DNA of 36,894 nucleotides, from NCBI GenBank assembly GCA_022822185.1, contig JAJECE010000090.1, forward strand, positions 1 through 36,894. Direction: 5' to 3'. Both the position numbers and the translations under genes were made by a program. Under the pieces are notes generated by a model, which made no database searches, was not told where the DNA came from, and worked only from the letters and a program-made list of their open reading frames with translations. Origin of the DNA: Rhodothermales bacterium (GTDB taxonomy: Bacteria > Bacteroidota > Rhodothermia > Rhodothermales > Bin80). Below are positions 876 to 17,824 of this stretch, piece after piece. Position 1 is the first letter of the stretch; the number at the start of each line of letters is the position of its first letter.

Positions 876-2600
876 ATGAATCAGAAAATTACTTATGTAT
901 CCCGTGCCCCGGAGGTTACGGATGTCATCGTAGTGGGCTCCGGGATCAGCGGAGGGTTCGCGGCAAAAGAACTCACGGAGGCAGGCCTGAATGTGTTACT
1001 TCTGGAGCGGGGATATAATCTGGTGCACGGTGCTGGATACGTTACGGAACACCTTGAAAATTGGGAATTCCCGGCCCGCAACAGCAAGGGATCCCGCCTG
1101 CACCAGCAGCAGTATGCAATTCAATCCCGGACCTATGCCTTTGCAGAGCACACGGAACATTTCTTTATTAATGATCAGGAGAATCCCTACATAGAAGGGG
1201 ATCCATTTACCTGGATCCGGGCGGATGTTGTGGGTGGACGTTCACTTTTGTGGGCCCGCCAGTGTTACCGGTGGGGGGCAATGGATTTTGAGGCGAATGC
1301 ACAGGATGGTATGGGTATTGACTGGCCGATCCGGTACGAAGAGATTGCACCTTGGTATGACCATGTAGAGCGATTTGCGGGGATTACCGGGCAACCCGAA
1401 GGCCTTTCACAGTGCCCGGATGGTATTTTTCTACCTCCGATGCCCCTGAACTGGGCAGAAGAGCGTGTACAGGAAGCAATCGCCAAATTTTTTGATGACC
1501 GGTTATTGACGATCGGCCGGGCCGCAATCCTTACCCAGCCTCATAATGGCCGGGCAGCATGCCACTACTGTGGCGAATGCTACCGAGGATGCTCCGCAGG
1601 GGCTTATTTCAGCAGCCTGAGTGCAACACTGCCCGCTGCACTTGCAACGGGCCGGCTGACCCTGCAGCCGGAAAGTATTGTGCACAGTGTCATTTATGAC
1701 GAAACGCAGGGAAAGGCGACCGGGGTTCGGTACATAGACCGCACCACCGGAGTCATGCGGGAGGCGTATGCCCGAATGATTTTCCTGTGCGCCTCCGCAC
1801 TGGGGACGACGCAGATCATGCTGAACTCAACCTCCCCCCGCTTTCCCGATGGTCTTGCAAATGATAGCGGGGTACTAGGGCACTATTTGATGGATCATCA
1901 CTTTCAGATTGGTGCCACCGGTGAGTTGCCGGGAGGTGAGGATCGGTACTTTCAGGGGAAACGCCCGAATGGGATCTATATCCCCCGGTTTCGAAATATC
2001 TCCAGAAAGACCCGGCGCAGTGATTACCTCCGAGGCTTCGGATATCAGGGAGAGGCGACCCGATCCTCCTGGAACCGCCCGGTGCAGGGCTTTGGTGCGG
2101 AACTCAAACAGACACTCAGAACGCCGGGCCCCTGGGAAATGGTTCTGGAGGCATTCGGGGAAGCATTGCCGAAATTTGACAACTATGTAACCCTTGATGA
2201 GTCGGTGACGGATGCATGGGGGATTCCGGTCCTGCGGATCCACTGTAAATGGGGCGAGAACGAATTCGCCATGCGGGAAGACATGAAACAATCCGCCGCA
2301 GAAATGCTGGATGCCGCAGGCGCAAAGAATATAGAGATCTATGACCATTATACAGAAGATGGTCTTGGTGCGGAGCCGGGACTGGGAATCCACGAGATGG
2401 GAACCGCCCGGATGGGACATGATCCGGCTACCAGCGTATTAAATGCGCATAATCAGTGCCACGCTGTTCCCAATGTATTTGTGACCGATGGTGCATGCAT
2501 GACATCTTCAGCATGTCAGAACCCGTCGATTACCTATATGGCCCTGACCGCAAGGGCCGCCGGCTATGCCGTGGATGAGTTGAAGCGCTTAAATCTCTGA
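876..2600 (+). CDS. GMC family oxidoreductase
   Basis: FAD-dependent glucose-methanol-choline oxidoreductase of 574 residues, a normal family length. The N-terminal Rossmann FAD site is clear (VIVVGSGISGG around residues 17-27, ending in LLLERG). A cysteine-rich CHYCGECYRGC segment at residues ~229-239 is common in the bacterial subgroup often annotated as sugar or choline dehydrogenases. The C-terminal GMC domain has HEMGTARMG and then NVFVTDGACMTSSACQNPS, containing the conserved active-site region and the NP pair. No signal peptide is visible, so the protein is cytoplasmic or exported with a partner. No gluconate-dehydrogenase subunit 3-like gene is adjacent. The substrate, probably a sugar or other alcohol, cannot be fixed from sequence. 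The gene stands alone, with ~280 nt of non-coding sequence before it. Confidence 0.92.
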   Translation: MNQKITYVSRAPEVTDVIVVGSGISGGFAAKELTEAGLNVLLLERGYNLVHGAGYVTEHLENWEFPARNSKGSRLHQQQYAIQSRTYAFAEHTEHFFINDQENPYIEGDPFTWIRADVVGGRSLLWARQCYRWGAMDFEANAQDGMGIDWPIRYEEIAPWYDHVERFAGITGQPEGLSQCPDGIFLPPMPLNWAEERVQEAIAKFFDDRLLTIGRAAILTQPHNGRAACHYCGECYRGCSAGAYFSSLSATLPAALATGRLTLQPESIVHSVIYDETQGKATGVRYIDRTTGVMREAYARMIFLCASALGTTQIMLNSTSPRFPDGLANDSGVLGHYLMDHHFQIGATGELPGGEDRYFQGKRPNGIYIPRFRNISRKTRRSDYLRGFGYQGEATRSSWNRPVQGFGAELKQTLRTPGPWEMVLEAFGEALPKFDNYVTLDESVTDAWGIPVLRIHCKWGENEFAMREDMKQSAAEMLDAAGAKNIEIYDHYTEDGLGAEPGLGIHEMGTARMGHDPATSVLNAHNQCHAVPNVFVTDGACMTSSACQNPSITYMALTARAAGYAVDELKRLNL

Positions 2601-2646
2601 CTATCTGAAAAACAGATCCAGTCGATGGTCATCCTGATCATGAGAG

Positions 2647-3543
2647 ATGCGTTCGCTGCCCGCAAGGTTTGGGGTGGTCTACAGGGTCTGCGTTTTTTTG
2701 AATGCCTTCACGAACATGATTGCTCTACTTTTTCTGATCCAGTTCCTGCCGCTGAAGGATGCACTTACGTTCCATGCATCTTTCGATTCAGTTTCAACTG
2801 CAGGCATTGCGGCAGGGGACCCGGTCCTTTATCGGACGCAGGCGTGGGAGGAGCGTGATGATGCACGTCCGGCTGCCCTGCCGGAGGGGGTGGTCTCCAT
2901 TGACGCGCACGGTGGACGCTACGGCGGTGCTCTGGACTTTTCCAGATACGCCGAAGCACTGTACTATTTTAAGGCGCAGGATAATTTTCCCTATGCCTCC
3001 AAGGGCTGGAATGCAACCATCTCCTTCTGGTTGAAACTGGATCCCAATCAGGATCTGGCTGAGGGGCAGTGGTGCGATCCGATACAGATTACCTCACGGG
3101 CCTGGGACGATGGGGCTATATTTGTGGACTTTACACGCAACCGTCCGAGGAAATTTCGCTTTGCTGCGTTTGCAGACCGTGAAAGATGGAATCCTGATGG
3201 CCAGCCGTGGGAGGAAATGGCACCGGGAGTGATGCCAATGATCACGGTGTCGTCTCCTCCGTTCAAGCGGGATGCATGGACGCATGTGGCTCTGGTGTTG
3301 CAGAGGTTCAATACCGACCCGGAGCATGCGGTACTCCTCGCGTATCTTAACGGGGAGCCTGCTGGCGTATTGGAGGGGCGAGATCAGGCAATTACCTGGA
3401 ATCCTGAGGATGTCCTTGTACAGATTGGGTTACAGTTCAAGGGGCAGATCGACGATCTGGCCTTCTTCAACCGGGATCTCTCATTGGAAGAAATGAGACA
3501 GGTGTATACGCTCCCGCATGGCATTGCAACGCTATATCCGTAG
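2647..3543 (+). CDS. Exported LamG/concanavalin A-like lectin-fold protein
   Basis: A 298-residue protein with a hydrophobic N-terminal segment (about residues 10-38), probably a signal peptide or anchor. ATG 2647 provides arginines before the hydrophobic core; ATG 2716, which starts inside it, is an alternative. The rest reads as one LamG-like jelly roll (~residues 42-290): LTFHASFD at the first strand, GALDFSRY, ATISFWLKL, the central WTHVALVLQRF strand, YLNGEPAG, and a closing QIDDLAFFNRDLSLEEM. This order is typical of LamG_3 domains on secreted carbohydrate-binding or surface proteins. The stop is 1 nt before the preferred start of the dehydrogenase/cytochrome lipoprotein downstream, so the two are probably co-translated and may act together outside the inner membrane. 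The ligand is unknown. Confidence 0.8.
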   Translation: MRSLPARFGVVYRVCVFLNAFTNMIALLFLIQFLPLKDALTFHASFDSVSTAGIAAGDPVLYRTQAWEERDDARPAALPEGVVSIDAHGGRYGGALDFSRYAEALYYFKAQDNFPYASKGWNATISFWLKLDPNQDLAEGQWCDPIQITSRAWDDGAIFVDFTRNRPRKFRFAAFADRERWNPDGQPWEEMAPGVMPMITVSSPPFKRDAWTHVALVLQRFNTDPEHAVLLAYLNGEPAGVLEGRDQAITWNPEDVLVQIGLQFKGQIDDLAFFNRDLSLEEMRQVYTLPHGIATLYP

Positions 3544-7168: not shown

Positions 7169-7609
7169 TTATTTTCCGATCCCGATGATCTCAATCAGGA
7201 TAAAGGGAATGGATCCAGAGAAGGCGAATGGAATGATCACATACCATGGTGCCGCCCGGAACATCCCGATCACGGCCACAGACATCAGCACAAAAGCGAT
7301 GCACGAGGCTAGGTAGATCAGGTGGCGATGCAATCGAAGTCTTGCATAACTTCGAAGCGTATTCAGTTTATGTCCTTTTTCGGCCAATTCCAAAATTCGT
7401 CCGGCCGCACCAGGAAGCACCTTCTCGTATTCGGCAAGTTCCTGGGCGCTGGGAATCGGGCAGGGATTGAGTGCGGAATCGTCATCCACCCATTCCTGCA
7501 ATCTACGGAGTGGATCTCTGAGCGGATCAGGTTTATTCTCTTCGGGTTTATCCTGACCGGATTCGCCGTTTTTGTAATGGCCGTTGCTTGAAGAATGATG
7601 CGTACTCAT
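7169..7609 (-). CDS. DUF2335-like small membrane protein
   Basis: About 146 residues from ATG 7609; an in-frame TTG at 7642 would add 11 residues. The first ~65 residues are hydrophilic and rich in S, N, P and D. AEYEKVLPGAAGRILELAEKG matches what I recall of the DUF2335 signature (LPGAAxRIlxMAEx). Two hydrophobic segments follow, near LIYLASCIAFVLMSVAVIG and VIIPFAFSGSIPFILIEIIG, with a short loop. The protein is therefore a two-pass membrane protein with a cytoplasmic N-terminus. The family has no established function; members often sit on mobile or phage-related DNA. ATG 7609 follows a weak TTGACT-N17-TACTAT promoter-like sequence by only 4 nt, so a leaderless mRNA is possible. The family name is from memory of the motif. 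Confidence 0.6.
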   Translation of the reverse strand: MSTHHSSSNGHYKNGESGQDKPEENKPDPLRDPLRRLQEWVDDDSALNPCPIPSAQELAEYEKVLPGAAGRILELAEKGHKLNTLRSYARLRLHRHLIYLASCIAFVLMSVAVIGMFRAAPWYVIIPFAFSGSIPFILIEIIGIGK

Positions 7610-7699
7610 CTGTATAGTATTCCAAATTGAGGTGTCAGTCAAGGGAGTGGATTATGTGCAAAATCAGGATTCATCCCCCTAAATGTAAGCATTATCGGT

Positions 7700-7888
7700 T
7701 TAACGTAGACCGACATGCGAACCCATCGTCACACTTTGAACGACAATCCATGAACTTTGAGCCATTTGATCGCCGATAGTCAGTCCCAGGAACTCCATCA
7801 GGAAGCATCCCCCAATCCCCAGCGTGGATATCATGGCGAGAATACGCCCAGACGGCGAGATCCAGGATGCGGACAGGAAACGGACCAC
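7700..7888 (-). CDS. Short membrane ORF, possibly an AtpI-like fragment
   Basis: A 62-residue reading frame from a GTG start, with an in-frame TGA two codons upstream. It has two hydrophobic stretches (RILAMISTLGIGGCFLMEFL and SSWIVVQSVTMGSHVGL) around GLTIGDQMAQ. The pattern G-x-x-x-D then S-x-W and G-x-x-x-GL faintly recalls AtpI-type proteins, as in the GYWLD and GTSPW segments of that family, but the match is too weak to name. It may be the remnant of a longer gene. No ribosome binding site is clear. It lies between the DUF2335-like gene and the amber-interrupted membrane gene, inside a patch that already shows decay. Confidence 0.25.
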   Translation of the reverse strand: MVRFLSASWISPSGRILAMISTLGIGGCFLMEFLGLTIGDQMAQSSWIVVQSVTMGSHVGLR

Positions 7889-7985
7889 GAATCAGAGGGA
7901 AGCGTTACTCCTGCCGTGATCCAGACTGCTCCGAATCACTGGGTAGATCATTTAGGTAGTTATGTACTTAACTGTAATTATCGAA

Positions 7986-8396
7986 TCACCCATTTCGTCT
8001 ACCGCCGTTTCTGAGCGTTATGTCACTGAACAAGTGTTTGACCGCGTAACTCGCCAAACCAACAATTTGGGCCAGATTCTGGACGAGTAAGGCAGGCAAA
8101 AGCCAATCATAATCTTTAAAGTCAAGTACTCTGAATCCTACAAGAACTAGGATGATCATCTGGTAACCAATCATACAACCAATGGCCCACAACAAGAACC
8201 GAGACTACTGACCTTTGTGTTTATAATACTGCTGACCCCCCTTGCAGTGTTCGTATTTTGTCTGTGATTCCAACTCTTGGGAATCAAACGAGGTAACGTA
8301 ACGCTCCCCGCCGTCTGGATCGGGAGATGGAATCTCGTCCAGCCCTCTTGGGAAAACATTTTGGATATTCCCGCCCTCACTGGACACTCCACTCAT
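7986..8396 (-). pseudogene. Membrane-protein gene interrupted by one in-frame amber codon
   Basis: ATG 8396 opens a 63-codon frame that stops at TAG (8207-8205). Directly after it the same frame continues for 72 codons to a second stop at 7986. Reading through gives one ~136-residue protein: a hydrophilic N-terminal half (GLDEIPSPDPDGGERY, then many K/Q/Y), then two probable membrane helices, AIGCMIGYQMIILVLVGF and LLPALLVQNLAQIVGLASYA, and a short basic tail. No frameshift is needed, only one sense codon at the TAG; CAG, TGG or AAG are single-base neighbours. The start is 2 nt after the immA/irrE-type stop, so the two genes form an operon. It is either a recent nonsense mutation, a sequencing error, or two peptides made by re-initiation at TTG 8195 or the nearby ATGs. 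The family is not recognised. Confidence 0.5.
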
Positions 8397-8398
8397 TC

Positions 8399-8899
8399 CT
8401 ACCTATCCTTCATTCTGATCTCTATCATTGTTCTTGACACGAAGAAAATGTCTGCCAGCGTACCAGCGCTCACAGTTGGATTTAGAACTGGCTTCAAAAG
8501 ATGATCGGGGGCAAGAAGATGGGCGGCGAATTTGTTGGCCTCTTTCTCATGCGGACTATTGTTGCTCGGCCTGCTGAACCGCGGAAGCACCGGATAGGTC
8601 TTTGGATTTTCCCCGAAAATACTTCGATGCATGACCCAATGTCCTAATTCGTGTGCAATTGTAAAGCTTTGCCTCCGTGGGCTGTCGGCGGCATTGACGA
8701 ACAACTTGGCCTTTCTGAAATCGCAATATCCAGCGACGCGCTCTGAACTGGACCCAAAATTGGCAAAGATTACGTTGACACCATTCTGCTCCGCAATTTC
8801 CAGAACTGGTACCGGTGGGGACGAATAGACCTCTGTCAATCCGTCTGCTTTGCGCTTGGCCATGACCAAATTCGCAACTCCTCCAGCGTTGCGTACCAT
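8399..8899 (-). CDS. ImmA/IrrE family zinc metallo-endopeptidase
   Basis: 166 residues. It shows the zinc signature HELGH (residues 83-87) within FTIAHELGHWVMH and the downstream ligand region HEKEANKFAAHLLAP (~117-131), where E120 is the likely third ligand. This is the ImmA/IrrE/M78 family, whose members cleave repressors or antitoxins in phage, ICE, stress and toxin-antitoxin settings. I chose ATG 8899 over the upstream in-frame ATG at 8935, because 8935 lies inside the -10 box of a consensus promoter. ATG 8899 also has a GAAGAG Shine-Dalgarno-like sequence 7 nt upstream and gives the usual family opening (MVRNAGGVANLV). No Xre-type repressor is adjacent; the gene 2 nt downstream is the amber-interrupted membrane protein. 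The substrate is unknown. The immediate neighbour upstream is a group II intron fragment. Confidence 0.85.
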   Translation of the reverse strand: MVRNAGGVANLVMAKRKADGLTEVYSSPPVPVLEIAEQNGVNVIFANFGSSSERVAGYCDFRKAKLFVNAADSPRRQSFTIAHELGHWVMHRSIFGENPKTYPVLPRFSRPSNNSPHEKEANKFAAHLLAPDHLLKPVLNPTVSAGTLADIFFVSRTMIEIRMKDR

Positions 8900-8933
8900 A
8901 GTAAAACTCTTCGGAGTGGTTTGTAAGCCGTTC

Positions 8934-8962
8934 ATTATACGAAAAAAACTCAAATGTGTCAA
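8934..8962 (-). promoter_or_regulatory. Consensus sigma-70 promoter for the immA/irrE-type operon
   Basis: On the minus strand TTGACA (8962-8957) is followed by a 17-nt spacer and TATAAT (8939-8934), a perfect match in both hexamers with optimal spacing. Transcription would begin near 8927 and leave a ~28-nt leader before ATG 8899 that contains GAAGAG. Such a box is unlike the TAnnTTTG elements expected for a Bacteroidota-type sigma factor, which suggests the operon came from another lineage. Confidence 0.75.
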
Positions 8963-9017
8963 CCAGCCTGCGAATCCCTTCACGGTAACGATAAGAAAAT
9001 CCCCCCGGCTACTCCAC

Positions 9018-9600
9018 GTGTGCCACGAGCAAAATACATGGAGGTAAGGCAATGACTTAGCCACAATGTATGAAACTGTACAAGGGATGGAGGCAGGTCC
9101 TCCACAACCGCTGTGCAGGCGGGGTTGTAAACCACCCACAGCTGAGGCATTTAAGAGGTGTCGTGGTGAGCGTGTCGGGAAAAGGCAGGTGTAGGAACCT
9201 GTCAGGTGTTCATCGTAGAGTCGAACGAAAGTGAATCATAGATGACGGTCAAAACCGGGGTCGTATATCCGTTCCGGGACGAGGTTGGCGGGTGCCTGCT
9301 TACTGTCTAACTGGCCTCCGGCATATACATGACGAGACTGCGATGTGGCCCTTGTATGGAACGTGGGAACCTGTCGGGGTGATGTGAAGGGAGCGTGTCA
9401 AGCGGGCAATCCCCGCAAGGCATTGAGTACCAACGCACTCCACAGGGGCGGATCATCCCGTAGTAGTGTGGAAATTCCTGTAATGGGAATGGAGCGAAGG
9501 GGGTGAACCATGCAGCGTAAGGCAACGAAGCAGCCAAGCGGGAGGACTTTGGCGCAAAACGCAAGGCCGTTTCCAGTCAATACCCAACAGCTGCATGACA
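9018..9600 (+). mobile_element. Group II intron remnant (5' ribozyme part, no reverse transcriptase body or domain V)
   Basis: This stretch has the recognisable order of a bacterial group II intron 5' half. A GTGTG start at 9018 fits the GUGYG intron boundary. It is followed by CCGCTGTGCAGGCGGGGTTG, GAGTCGAACGAAAGTGAA, GGAACGTGGGAACCTGTCGG, GGTGATGTGAAGGGAGC, GGGCAATCCCCGCAAGGC, and TCCCGTAGTAGTGTGG with GGAATGGAGCGAAGGGGGTG just before an ATG at 9510. In intact introns this is domain I into domain IV, where the maturase ORF begins. Here only ~30 plausible maturase N-terminal residues remain (MQRKATKQPSGRTLAQNARP...), then the frame wanders into unrelated sequence. No YADD motif and no domain V (AGC...GAAA...GUU hairpin) is found before uxaA at 9845. 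The element must be splicing- and mobility-dead. The 3' limit is approximate. Confidence 0.75.
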
Positions 9601-9844
9601 TGTATCCGTACGAGGTAATTACCCTCAAAAGCTTGATCGGATGCTCAAGCCGATGTCGATTTACGGTTGAGTATATAATTCCCTTCATTTATGCAGGAGG
9701 ATCAGGTTCGGGAGGCATGCGGTACATTGTAGAAGGAGGTTGCGAAAGACGCAGGGGGCAGAGCTGCCGTATTTGTAACGGGGATTGAGTTGAGATGGAT
9801 GCTCATTCAAACTCCCTGCATCGGAACAATTTCGTGATCTTTTG
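9601..9844. other. Non-coding joint between intron remnant and uxaA-like gene
   Basis: No credible gene. A plus-strand frame from 9510 runs through to 9788 but is low-complexity and matches nothing I know. Two mutually exclusive hairpins overlap at 9631-9654: GCTTGA (9631-9636) with TCAAGC (9645-9650), and ATCGG (9636-9640) with CCGAT (9650-9654). A TATAAT-like box follows near 9673. The stretch probably marks a deletion junction that removed the intron's 3' part. Confidence 0.4.
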
Positions 9845-17753: not shown

Positions 17754-17824
17754 TGCCCGGTCGTCTAATGGCAGGACAGCGGCCTTTGGAGCCGTCGGTG
17801 GAGGTTCGAGTCCTCCCCGGGCAA
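17754..17824 (+). tRNA. tRNA-Gln (anticodon UUG)
   Basis: A full cloverleaf can be folded. The acceptor TGCCCGG pairs with CCGGGCA. The anticodon stem GCGGC/GCCGT encloses the loop CTTTGGA with anticodon TTG. The T-stem GGAGG/CCTCC encloses TTCGAGT. The discriminator base is A, and no CCA is encoded (ACTC follows). The D-arm has the usual GTC...GAC. UUG reads CAA and CAG by wobble. Followed 34 nt later by prs on the same strand. Confidence 0.96.

What the first reader, a model, noticed from the sequence alone, without database searches (positions are those of the whole stretch)
7986..8899. ImmA/IrrE metallopeptidase coupled to a two-helix membrane protein, split by one amber codon
The membrane gene starts 2 nt after the peptidase stop, and a single TAG divides an otherwise continuous ~136-codon frame exactly between its soluble half and its membrane half. 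Partners of ImmA/IrrE are usually Xre repressors or toxins; a membrane partner is unusual. The TAG may be a recent mutation or may allow separate soluble and membrane peptides.
Basis: partly seen in the sequence, partly recalled or inferred. Interest (0 to 1): 0.55.

Follow-up and report, generated by a model that had tools for sequence, protein, structure and literature searches.

The report
Toxin-antitoxin pair with broken toxin
A bacterium of the order Rhodothermales carries a two-gene module, a peptidase that is probably the antitoxin and a small membrane protein that is probably its pore-forming toxin, in which the toxin gene looks recently cut short by a stop codon; the kind of module is already known from a phage, and this copy is an ordinary casualty of decay.

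Summary
In detail: an M78 (ImmA/IrrE) peptidase gene (8399-8899, minus) is followed after 2 nt by a 136-codon frame with one TAG (8205-8207). The frame is a real gene. A pattern scan of 84,980 species genomes found 19 relatives; 18 are complete and uninterrupted, have Trp at the TAG column and have M78 directly upstream, the 19th is cut by a contig end. The same genome holds an uninterrupted second copy. Iterated profiles, though not direct comparison, connect the membrane protein to RmrT_D5 of Gordonia phage Kita. Kita's published RosmerTA pair has the same gene order; its toxin depolarises membranes and the pair protects E. coli against some phages (PMC10440598). Best reading: a Kita-type RosmerTA module whose toxin gene was recently interrupted. 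The part after the TAG has not diverged faster than in intact relatives, so an assembly error is not excluded. Sister genome G003 lacks the module at this site. Damaged copies are common in the genus; no intact toxin without its peptidase was seen. Separate soluble and membrane peptides are not supported. New, decayed member of a known kind.

The parts
8399..8899 (-). M78 (ImmA/IrrE) metallopeptidase, 166 aa, no HTH domain; likely antitoxin, RmrA-like
   Evidence: PF06114 E 9.9e-18; HExxH; start chosen by alignment with relatives
7986..8396 (-). Reading frame of the two-TM partner (136 codons plus stop), RmrT_D5-like toxin, interrupted
8205..8207 (-). In-frame TAG, in the column where 12 of 12 other rows of alignment A4 have Trp
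8208..8396 (-). 63-codon N-terminal part: variable tail and start of the helix that leads to the first membrane stretch
   Evidence: model of the G007 relative
7989..8204 (-). Part after the stop: conserved two-TM hairpin
   Evidence: hydropathy of relatives
7828..9542 (.). Segment replaced by 63 unrelated bases at the syntenic site of genome G003
9018..9597 (+). 5' part of a group II intron next to the peptidase gene (a neighbour, not part of the module)
   Evidence: RF01999 at 9089-9207, E 3.2e-17; similar copies elsewhere in the genus that run to about 9597

Best explanation
The locus is a Kita-type RosmerTA toxin-antitoxin module. The first gene, an HTH-less M78 peptidase, restrains the product of the second, a small protein with a flexible cytoplasmic tail and two membrane helices that can make a depolarising pore, probably when a phage upsets the peptidase. 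In this genome the toxin frame carries a recent nonsense codon ahead of the membrane hairpin, so the pore part is not made as one protein, while the peptidase is kept. Shown here: pairing, gene order, homology by iterated profiles, the stop, slow divergence after it, and absence of the module in the sister genome. Published for the Kita relative: toxicity, depolarisation, incomplete neutralisation, phage defence. Inferred: that the Rhodothermales members do the same, how the peptidase neutralises, and that the stop is in the living organism and not a sequencing error.
For: 18 of 19 ORF2 loci from 84,980 species genomes are complete and uninterrupted and 18 of 18 of these have an M78 frame directly upstream that overlaps the ORF2 open frame. 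Of 28 viral M78 loci examined (of 32 found), the 11 best have a two-TM frame abutting or overlapping the M78 end. Profile chain to Kita gp33: E 7.6e-4 before inclusion among 7289 frames, 3.6e-20 after; a two-sequence Kita-type profile gives hhalign 91%. Kita's own M78 ranks in PADLOC as the window's does, CapP first and RmrA second. M78 tree of 90 chosen rows: the window lies in a 25-row clade (100/100) in which every row has this partner. Published function. Recency: dN after the stop 0.177 and 0.133 to G007 and G004 against 0.182 between those two; M78 dN/dS 0.184 and 0.194 against 0.145. Uneven decay: 3 loci with M78 kept and toxin broken or absent, 0 with intact toxin and no intact M78.
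Against: Direct similarity to Kita gp33 is not significant: E 2.8 in the first round and hhalign with Kita alone 39% over 31 columns, WelcomeAyanna alone 62% over 89; the decoys were single sequences, so the 91% is not like for like; one decoy reached 19% and the Helicobacter partner 30% over 12 columns. The published RmrA did not fully neutralise RmrT_D5. No functional data exist for Rhodothermales or alphaproteobacterial members. Only 3 of 10 neighbouring proteins tested in relatives had a PADLOC hit, and 0 of 6 window neighbours.
Confidence: 0.74

Rival explanations
1. The membrane protein is an anchor or substrate of the M78 peptidase in a signalling pathway, not a toxin: the peptidase cleaves its tail on a signal and the cell responds.
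For: HExxH is kept in 24 of 24 viral and 18 of 18 genome M78s with this partner that I checked. The tail is variable and low in model confidence. Solved relatives are the proteases CapP and IrrE.
Against: The Kita relative is a depolarising toxin; the loss pattern fits toxin and antitoxin.
Confidence: 0.14
2. The TAG is a sequencing or assembly error and the module in this genome is intact.
For: A single stop in an otherwise undamaged frame, with divergence like that of intact relatives.
Against: Copies of the module decay often in this genus and the sister genome has lost it at this site.
Confidence: 0.15
3. The amber codon is functional: readthrough or restart gives separate soluble and membrane peptides.
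For: TTG codons follow 4 and 5 codons after the TAG; the hairpin stays conserved.
Against: 12 of 12 other rows of A4 and 18 of 18 complete genome loci are uninterrupted. The M78 gene itself ends in TAG, as do 5 of 26 large window ORFs that I chose, M78 included. A start there would lie inside the helix of the first membrane stretch (weak model).
Confidence: 0.04

Closest known systems
RosmerTA of Gordonia phage Kita (RmrA_D25 : RmrT_D5; Ernits et al. 2023, PMC10440598)
   Same: HTH-less M78 gene followed by an overlapping small two-TM gene; toxin family connected by iterated profiles; same PADLOC ranking of the M78
   Different: Another phylum and a chromosome, not a phage; frame of 136 codons against 119; the window toxin is interrupted
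RosmerTA as modelled in PADLOC (RmrA models of 357-400 positions)
   Same: The window M78 matches RmrA models, best E 1.1e-11
   Different: It matches only model positions 140 and later and is 166 aa. The ORF2 relatives had no PADLOC hit below 0.005, nor did Kita gp33 below 0.001
CBASS CapH/CapP
   Same: Closest PADLOC model of the M78 is CapP (3.9e-23); closest solved structure is CapP, 7t5t (8.6e-7)
   Different: No HTH or CBASS match among the window frames scanned. Kita's M78 ranks the same way, so the ranking does not separate the two
ImmR/ImmA of ICEBs1 (from passages of PMC10440598)
   Same: Same peptidase family
   Different: No repressor found beside the window gene among the frames scanned

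Membership tests
RosmerTA, Kita type | M78 (ImmA) protein as one partner | tested here: met
   PF06114 E 9.9e-18
RosmerTA, Kita type | Adjacent small gene homologous to RmrT_D5 | tested here: met
   Only by iterated profiles: E 7.6e-4 before inclusion, 2.8 directly
RosmerTA, Kita type | Complete toxin gene | tested here: not met
   TAG at codon 64 in the window; the G000:C10 copy is uninterrupted. The window copy is filed as a decayed member only
RosmerTA, Kita type | Toxicity neutralised by the M78 partner; phage defence | not testable with these tools
   Published for Kita
RosmerTA, PADLOC RmrA architecture | RmrA of about 360-400 aa with the M78 domain in its later part | tested here: not met
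   166 aa; matches model positions 140 and later. Kita's M78 fails this too
CBASS CapH/CapP | HTH partner CapH beside CapP, next to CBASS genes | tested here: not met
   No such match among the window frames scanned: 4 plus 4 in Pfam, 6 neighbours in PADLOC

The most novel reading that the evidence does not exclude
The two-TM partners are one large pore-toxin family, without a named model in the libraries tried, that reaches from Rhodothermales and Alphaproteobacteria to phages of Gordonia and Mammaliicoccus; and their M78 partners are infection- or damage-sensing proteases that hold or fire the pore by acting on its flexible tail, a membrane counterpart of CapP acting on CapH.
Probability: 0.25. 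Interest if true: 0.55.

Novelty: new member of a known kind. Interest (0 to 1): 0.3.

Why it matters
It turns an unexplained membrane gene beside an M78 peptidase into a testable toxin-antitoxin pair, extends a toxin type reported from one Gordonia phage to another phylum and to Alphaproteobacteria, and shows one copy in decay with uninterrupted copies in the same genome and genus for comparison.

Tried and rejected
Openness of the frame as evidence: rejected, 42 of 260 comparable frames do the same. Searches that found nothing useful: ORF2 of L048 in phages (no match); narrow alignment A3 in viral contigs (23 pattern matches, none confirmed); Kita gp33 in plasmids (no match) and in viral contigs (only a contig identical to itself); ORF2 profile in solved structures (none at E 1).

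Family libraries: no ORF2 relative reached a curated Pfam or NCBIfam cut-off (8 relatives in Pfam and NCBIfam). Weak hits existed: DUF2976 8.1e-4 below its cut-off, PHROGs best 0.0069, PADLOC 0.0078. Kita gp33 matches phrog_13343 at 2.2e-5 and the Mammaliicoccus partner phrog_5346 at 2.7e-5, both of unknown function; L048 hit both very weakly (0.85 and 0.21) and L047 hit phrog_5346 (0.078). So unnamed PHROGs models touch parts of this family. The Mammaliicoccus partner also had weak hits to YobI-ATPase (7.6e-4, below cut-off) and LeoBC (5.1e-4).

A fold search was not run because the model is weak. Spread: ORF2 in 4 of 394 drawn genomes of the phylum, all in the window's genus, and in 2 of 298 drawn genomes of the family of G099, one being G099 itself. 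It is rare and patchy; horizontal transfer is likely but was not tested against a species tree.

Papers: listings, and the empty, showed no paper on the Rhodothermales or alphaproteobacterial pair; 'irre' also matches 'irreversible'. That is all the claim of no earlier report rests on, and supplements of Ernits et al. were not seen.

Limits of counts: one search took 28 of 32 loci; one search kept the best 80 of at least 503; undercounts, as one search found three more (L121, L123, L147); the tree has 90 rows that I chose, without near-copies and without the more distant M78s, and rows labelled 'none' (L111, L113, L132) sit among partnered ones. L054 and L055, two of the 11, have two-TM partners that are not detectably homologous.

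Full report
What is there. On the minus strand an M78 peptidase gene (8399-8899, 166 aa, no HTH domain; PF06114 E 9.9e-18; start set by alignment) is followed after 2 nt by an ATG at 8396. From it 63 codons run to a TAG at 8205-8207, and 72 further codons stay open to the stop at 7986-7988. An open frame of this length after a stop is not rare here (42 of 260), so the case rests on homologues.

Homologues. The same genome has a second copy on contig C10: M78 62% identical and a partner frame without any stop; its first ATG would give only 100 aa of the 142-codon open frame, so its true start is unsure. Among 99 genomes (own, genus, family, order) ORF2 was matched in 7. A pattern scan of 84,980 species genomes with a 13-row alignment gave 19 loci, 4 from Rhodothermales and 15 from Proteobacteria, mostly Alphaproteobacteria by their titles. 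Eighteen carry the complete frame without a stop and with Trp at the column of the TAG, and all 18 have an M78 frame directly upstream that overlaps the ORF2 open frame. The nineteenth is cut by a contig end. These titles place the window's genus in Rhodothermales. In alignment A4, 12 of 12 other rows have Trp there.

Viral relatives. An M78 scan of viral contigs gave 32 loci. Of the 28 I examined, the 11 best (L045-L055) have a two-TM open frame that begins within -28 to +1 nt of the M78 stop; the other 17 have none of this kind. A wider scan kept the best 80 of at least 503 relatives: 28 of 78 assessable loci have such a frame. Its query came from such pairs, so this is not an unbiased rate.

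Link to a known system. Gordonia phages Polly and Kita carry a metalloprotease gene overlapping by 4 nt a small two-TM gene. Ernits et al. 2023 (PMC10440598; I saw passages, section 11 part 1 of 2 and reference list part 1 of 2) report the Kita pair as RosmerTA: RmrT_D5 stops growth of E. coli, depolarises and permeabilises its membrane, is not fully neutralised by RmrA_D25, and the pair protects against some phages of a coliphage set (text: Bas54 and Bas59; figure legend: Bas54 and Bas60). From the window's ORF2 family, Kita gp33 was not detected directly (E 2.8). One round added six rows: three re-fetched copies of members (L109, L110, L112), two new viral partners (L151, L161) and the Mammaliicoccus phage phi31 partner. 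Then Kita gp33 came up at 7.6e-4 and WelcomeAyanna gp34 at 4.1e-4 among 7289 frames, and at 3.6e-20 and 8e-27 after inclusion; 16 of the 28 viral partners joined. The frames come mostly from loci around M78 genes, so these are E-values for a small set. The only background frames below E 0.02 at the end that held no family sequence (L121, L123, L147) also lie just downstream of an M78 match. In profile comparison the two-sequence Kita profile scored 91%, Kita alone 39% over 31 columns, WelcomeAyanna alone 62% over 89, the Helicobacter partner 30% over 12 columns, one decoy 19%, and the other single two-TM decoys shown under 6%. I take homology as likely, not proven.

The peptidase. In a tree of 90 chosen rows the window falls in a 25-row clade (100/100) in which every row has the RmrT_D5-like partner; partner types need 18 changes on the tree against 39.3 on shuffled labels, as low in 0 of 200. 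HExxH is present in 24 of 24 viral and 18 of 18 genome M78s with this partner that I checked. The closest solved structures are CapP (7t5t) and IrrE (3dte). The best PADLOC model is CapP, then RmrA; Kita's own M78 ranks alike, CapP 1e-25 and RmrA 4.8e-15, so the CapP ranking is no evidence against the Kita type. Of four plasmid relatives opened, three have an HTH regulator gene just upstream (not 69); the window gene has none among the frames scanned.

State of the window copy. After the stop, dN is 0.177 and 0.133 to G007 and G004, against 0.182 between those two; before it, 0.351 and 0.329 against 0.303. M78 dN/dS is 0.184 and 0.194 to them, against 0.145 between them. The stop is therefore young, or an assembly error. 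The M78 gene ends in TAG itself and 5 of 26 large ORFs that I chose, M78 included, do, so TAG is an ordinary stop here. The AlphaFold2 model of the intact G007 relative (mean pLDDT 62.9, pTM 0.33) has a low-confidence start and helices 29-87 and 99-130; its residue 64, the Trp of the TAG column, is inside the first helix. Restart at the TTG codons just after the TAG is possible, but nothing conserved points to it.

Decay in the family. Uninterrupted pairs: G000:C10, G003:C128, G004:C65, G007:C87, G014:C1. M78 kept and toxin broken or absent: the window, G003:C39 (M78 matched to 172 of 173 residues, its frame running on; 38 residues of the toxin left) and G009:C166 (no toxin match). Both damaged: G009:C99. 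Partial or at contig ends: G002:C103 with C32, G009:C178, G003:C94, G000:C96. No intact toxin without an intact M78 was seen among these loci. That is what a toxin and its antitoxin would leave behind. At the window's site the near relative G003 (96% identity in the neighbouring altronate dehydratase-like gene) has 63 unrelated bases in place of 7828-9542. It keeps 9543-9840 at 90%, whose first 55 bases belong to the intron as other copies show. So the intron end was there before, and loss in G003 is simpler than gain in the window.

Context. In relatives, neighbours given to Pfam include a GmrSD_N protein and a RadC-like protein (G003), an AbiJ_NTD4 protein (G007), and in seven alphaproteobacterial cases three metabolic enzymes and four without a family. 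Of 10 neighbours given to PADLOC, 3 had hits: NsnA (G003, 9.8e-67), PDC-S32 (G007, 3.3e-25) and weakly mad8 (G004, 9.9e-7); 7 had none. None of 6 window neighbours had a PADLOC hit. A defence setting is suggested for three of the genus's loci, not shown for the window or in general.

Verdict. A Kita-type RosmerTA toxin-antitoxin module with an apparently recently interrupted toxin gene: a new, decayed member of a known kind.

Noticed in passing
window 9018-9597, plus strand: 5' part of a group II intron beside the M78 gene (RF01999). Similar stretches occur in 10 of 17 genomes searched; 21 of the 41 other matches begin at the same base to within 3, and copies run to about 9597.
   Followed up: partly
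L011 (G009:C166) 2497-3162, plus: Reverse transcriptase (PF00078, E 7.1e-23) downstream of an M78 gene whose toxin partner is missing: an intron-type element stands near where the toxin gene would be.
   Followed up: partly
window 7169-7642, minus: DUF2335 membrane protein near the pair (PF10097 E 7e-8; phrog_3996 moron membrane protein). A membrane-protein-like ORF near the C10 copy (L002 2302-3105) had no Pfam match.
   Followed up: partly
L044 (G000:C96) 1378-1566 and L043 (G003:C94) 1501-1668: In two genomes the same truncated start of the toxin gene is joined to a similar long ORF (weak AAA_16 match below cut-off in L044), as if one rearrangement was inherited or spread.
   Followed up: partly
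L054, L055, L081, L082, L122, L130, L137, L140, L155, L163: Phage M78 genes whose two-TM neighbours are not detectably homologous to the RmrT_D5 type, some with a long stretch between the helices: possible further membrane partners.
   Followed up: partly
window 17754-17824, plus: tRNA gene (RF00005).
   Followed up: no
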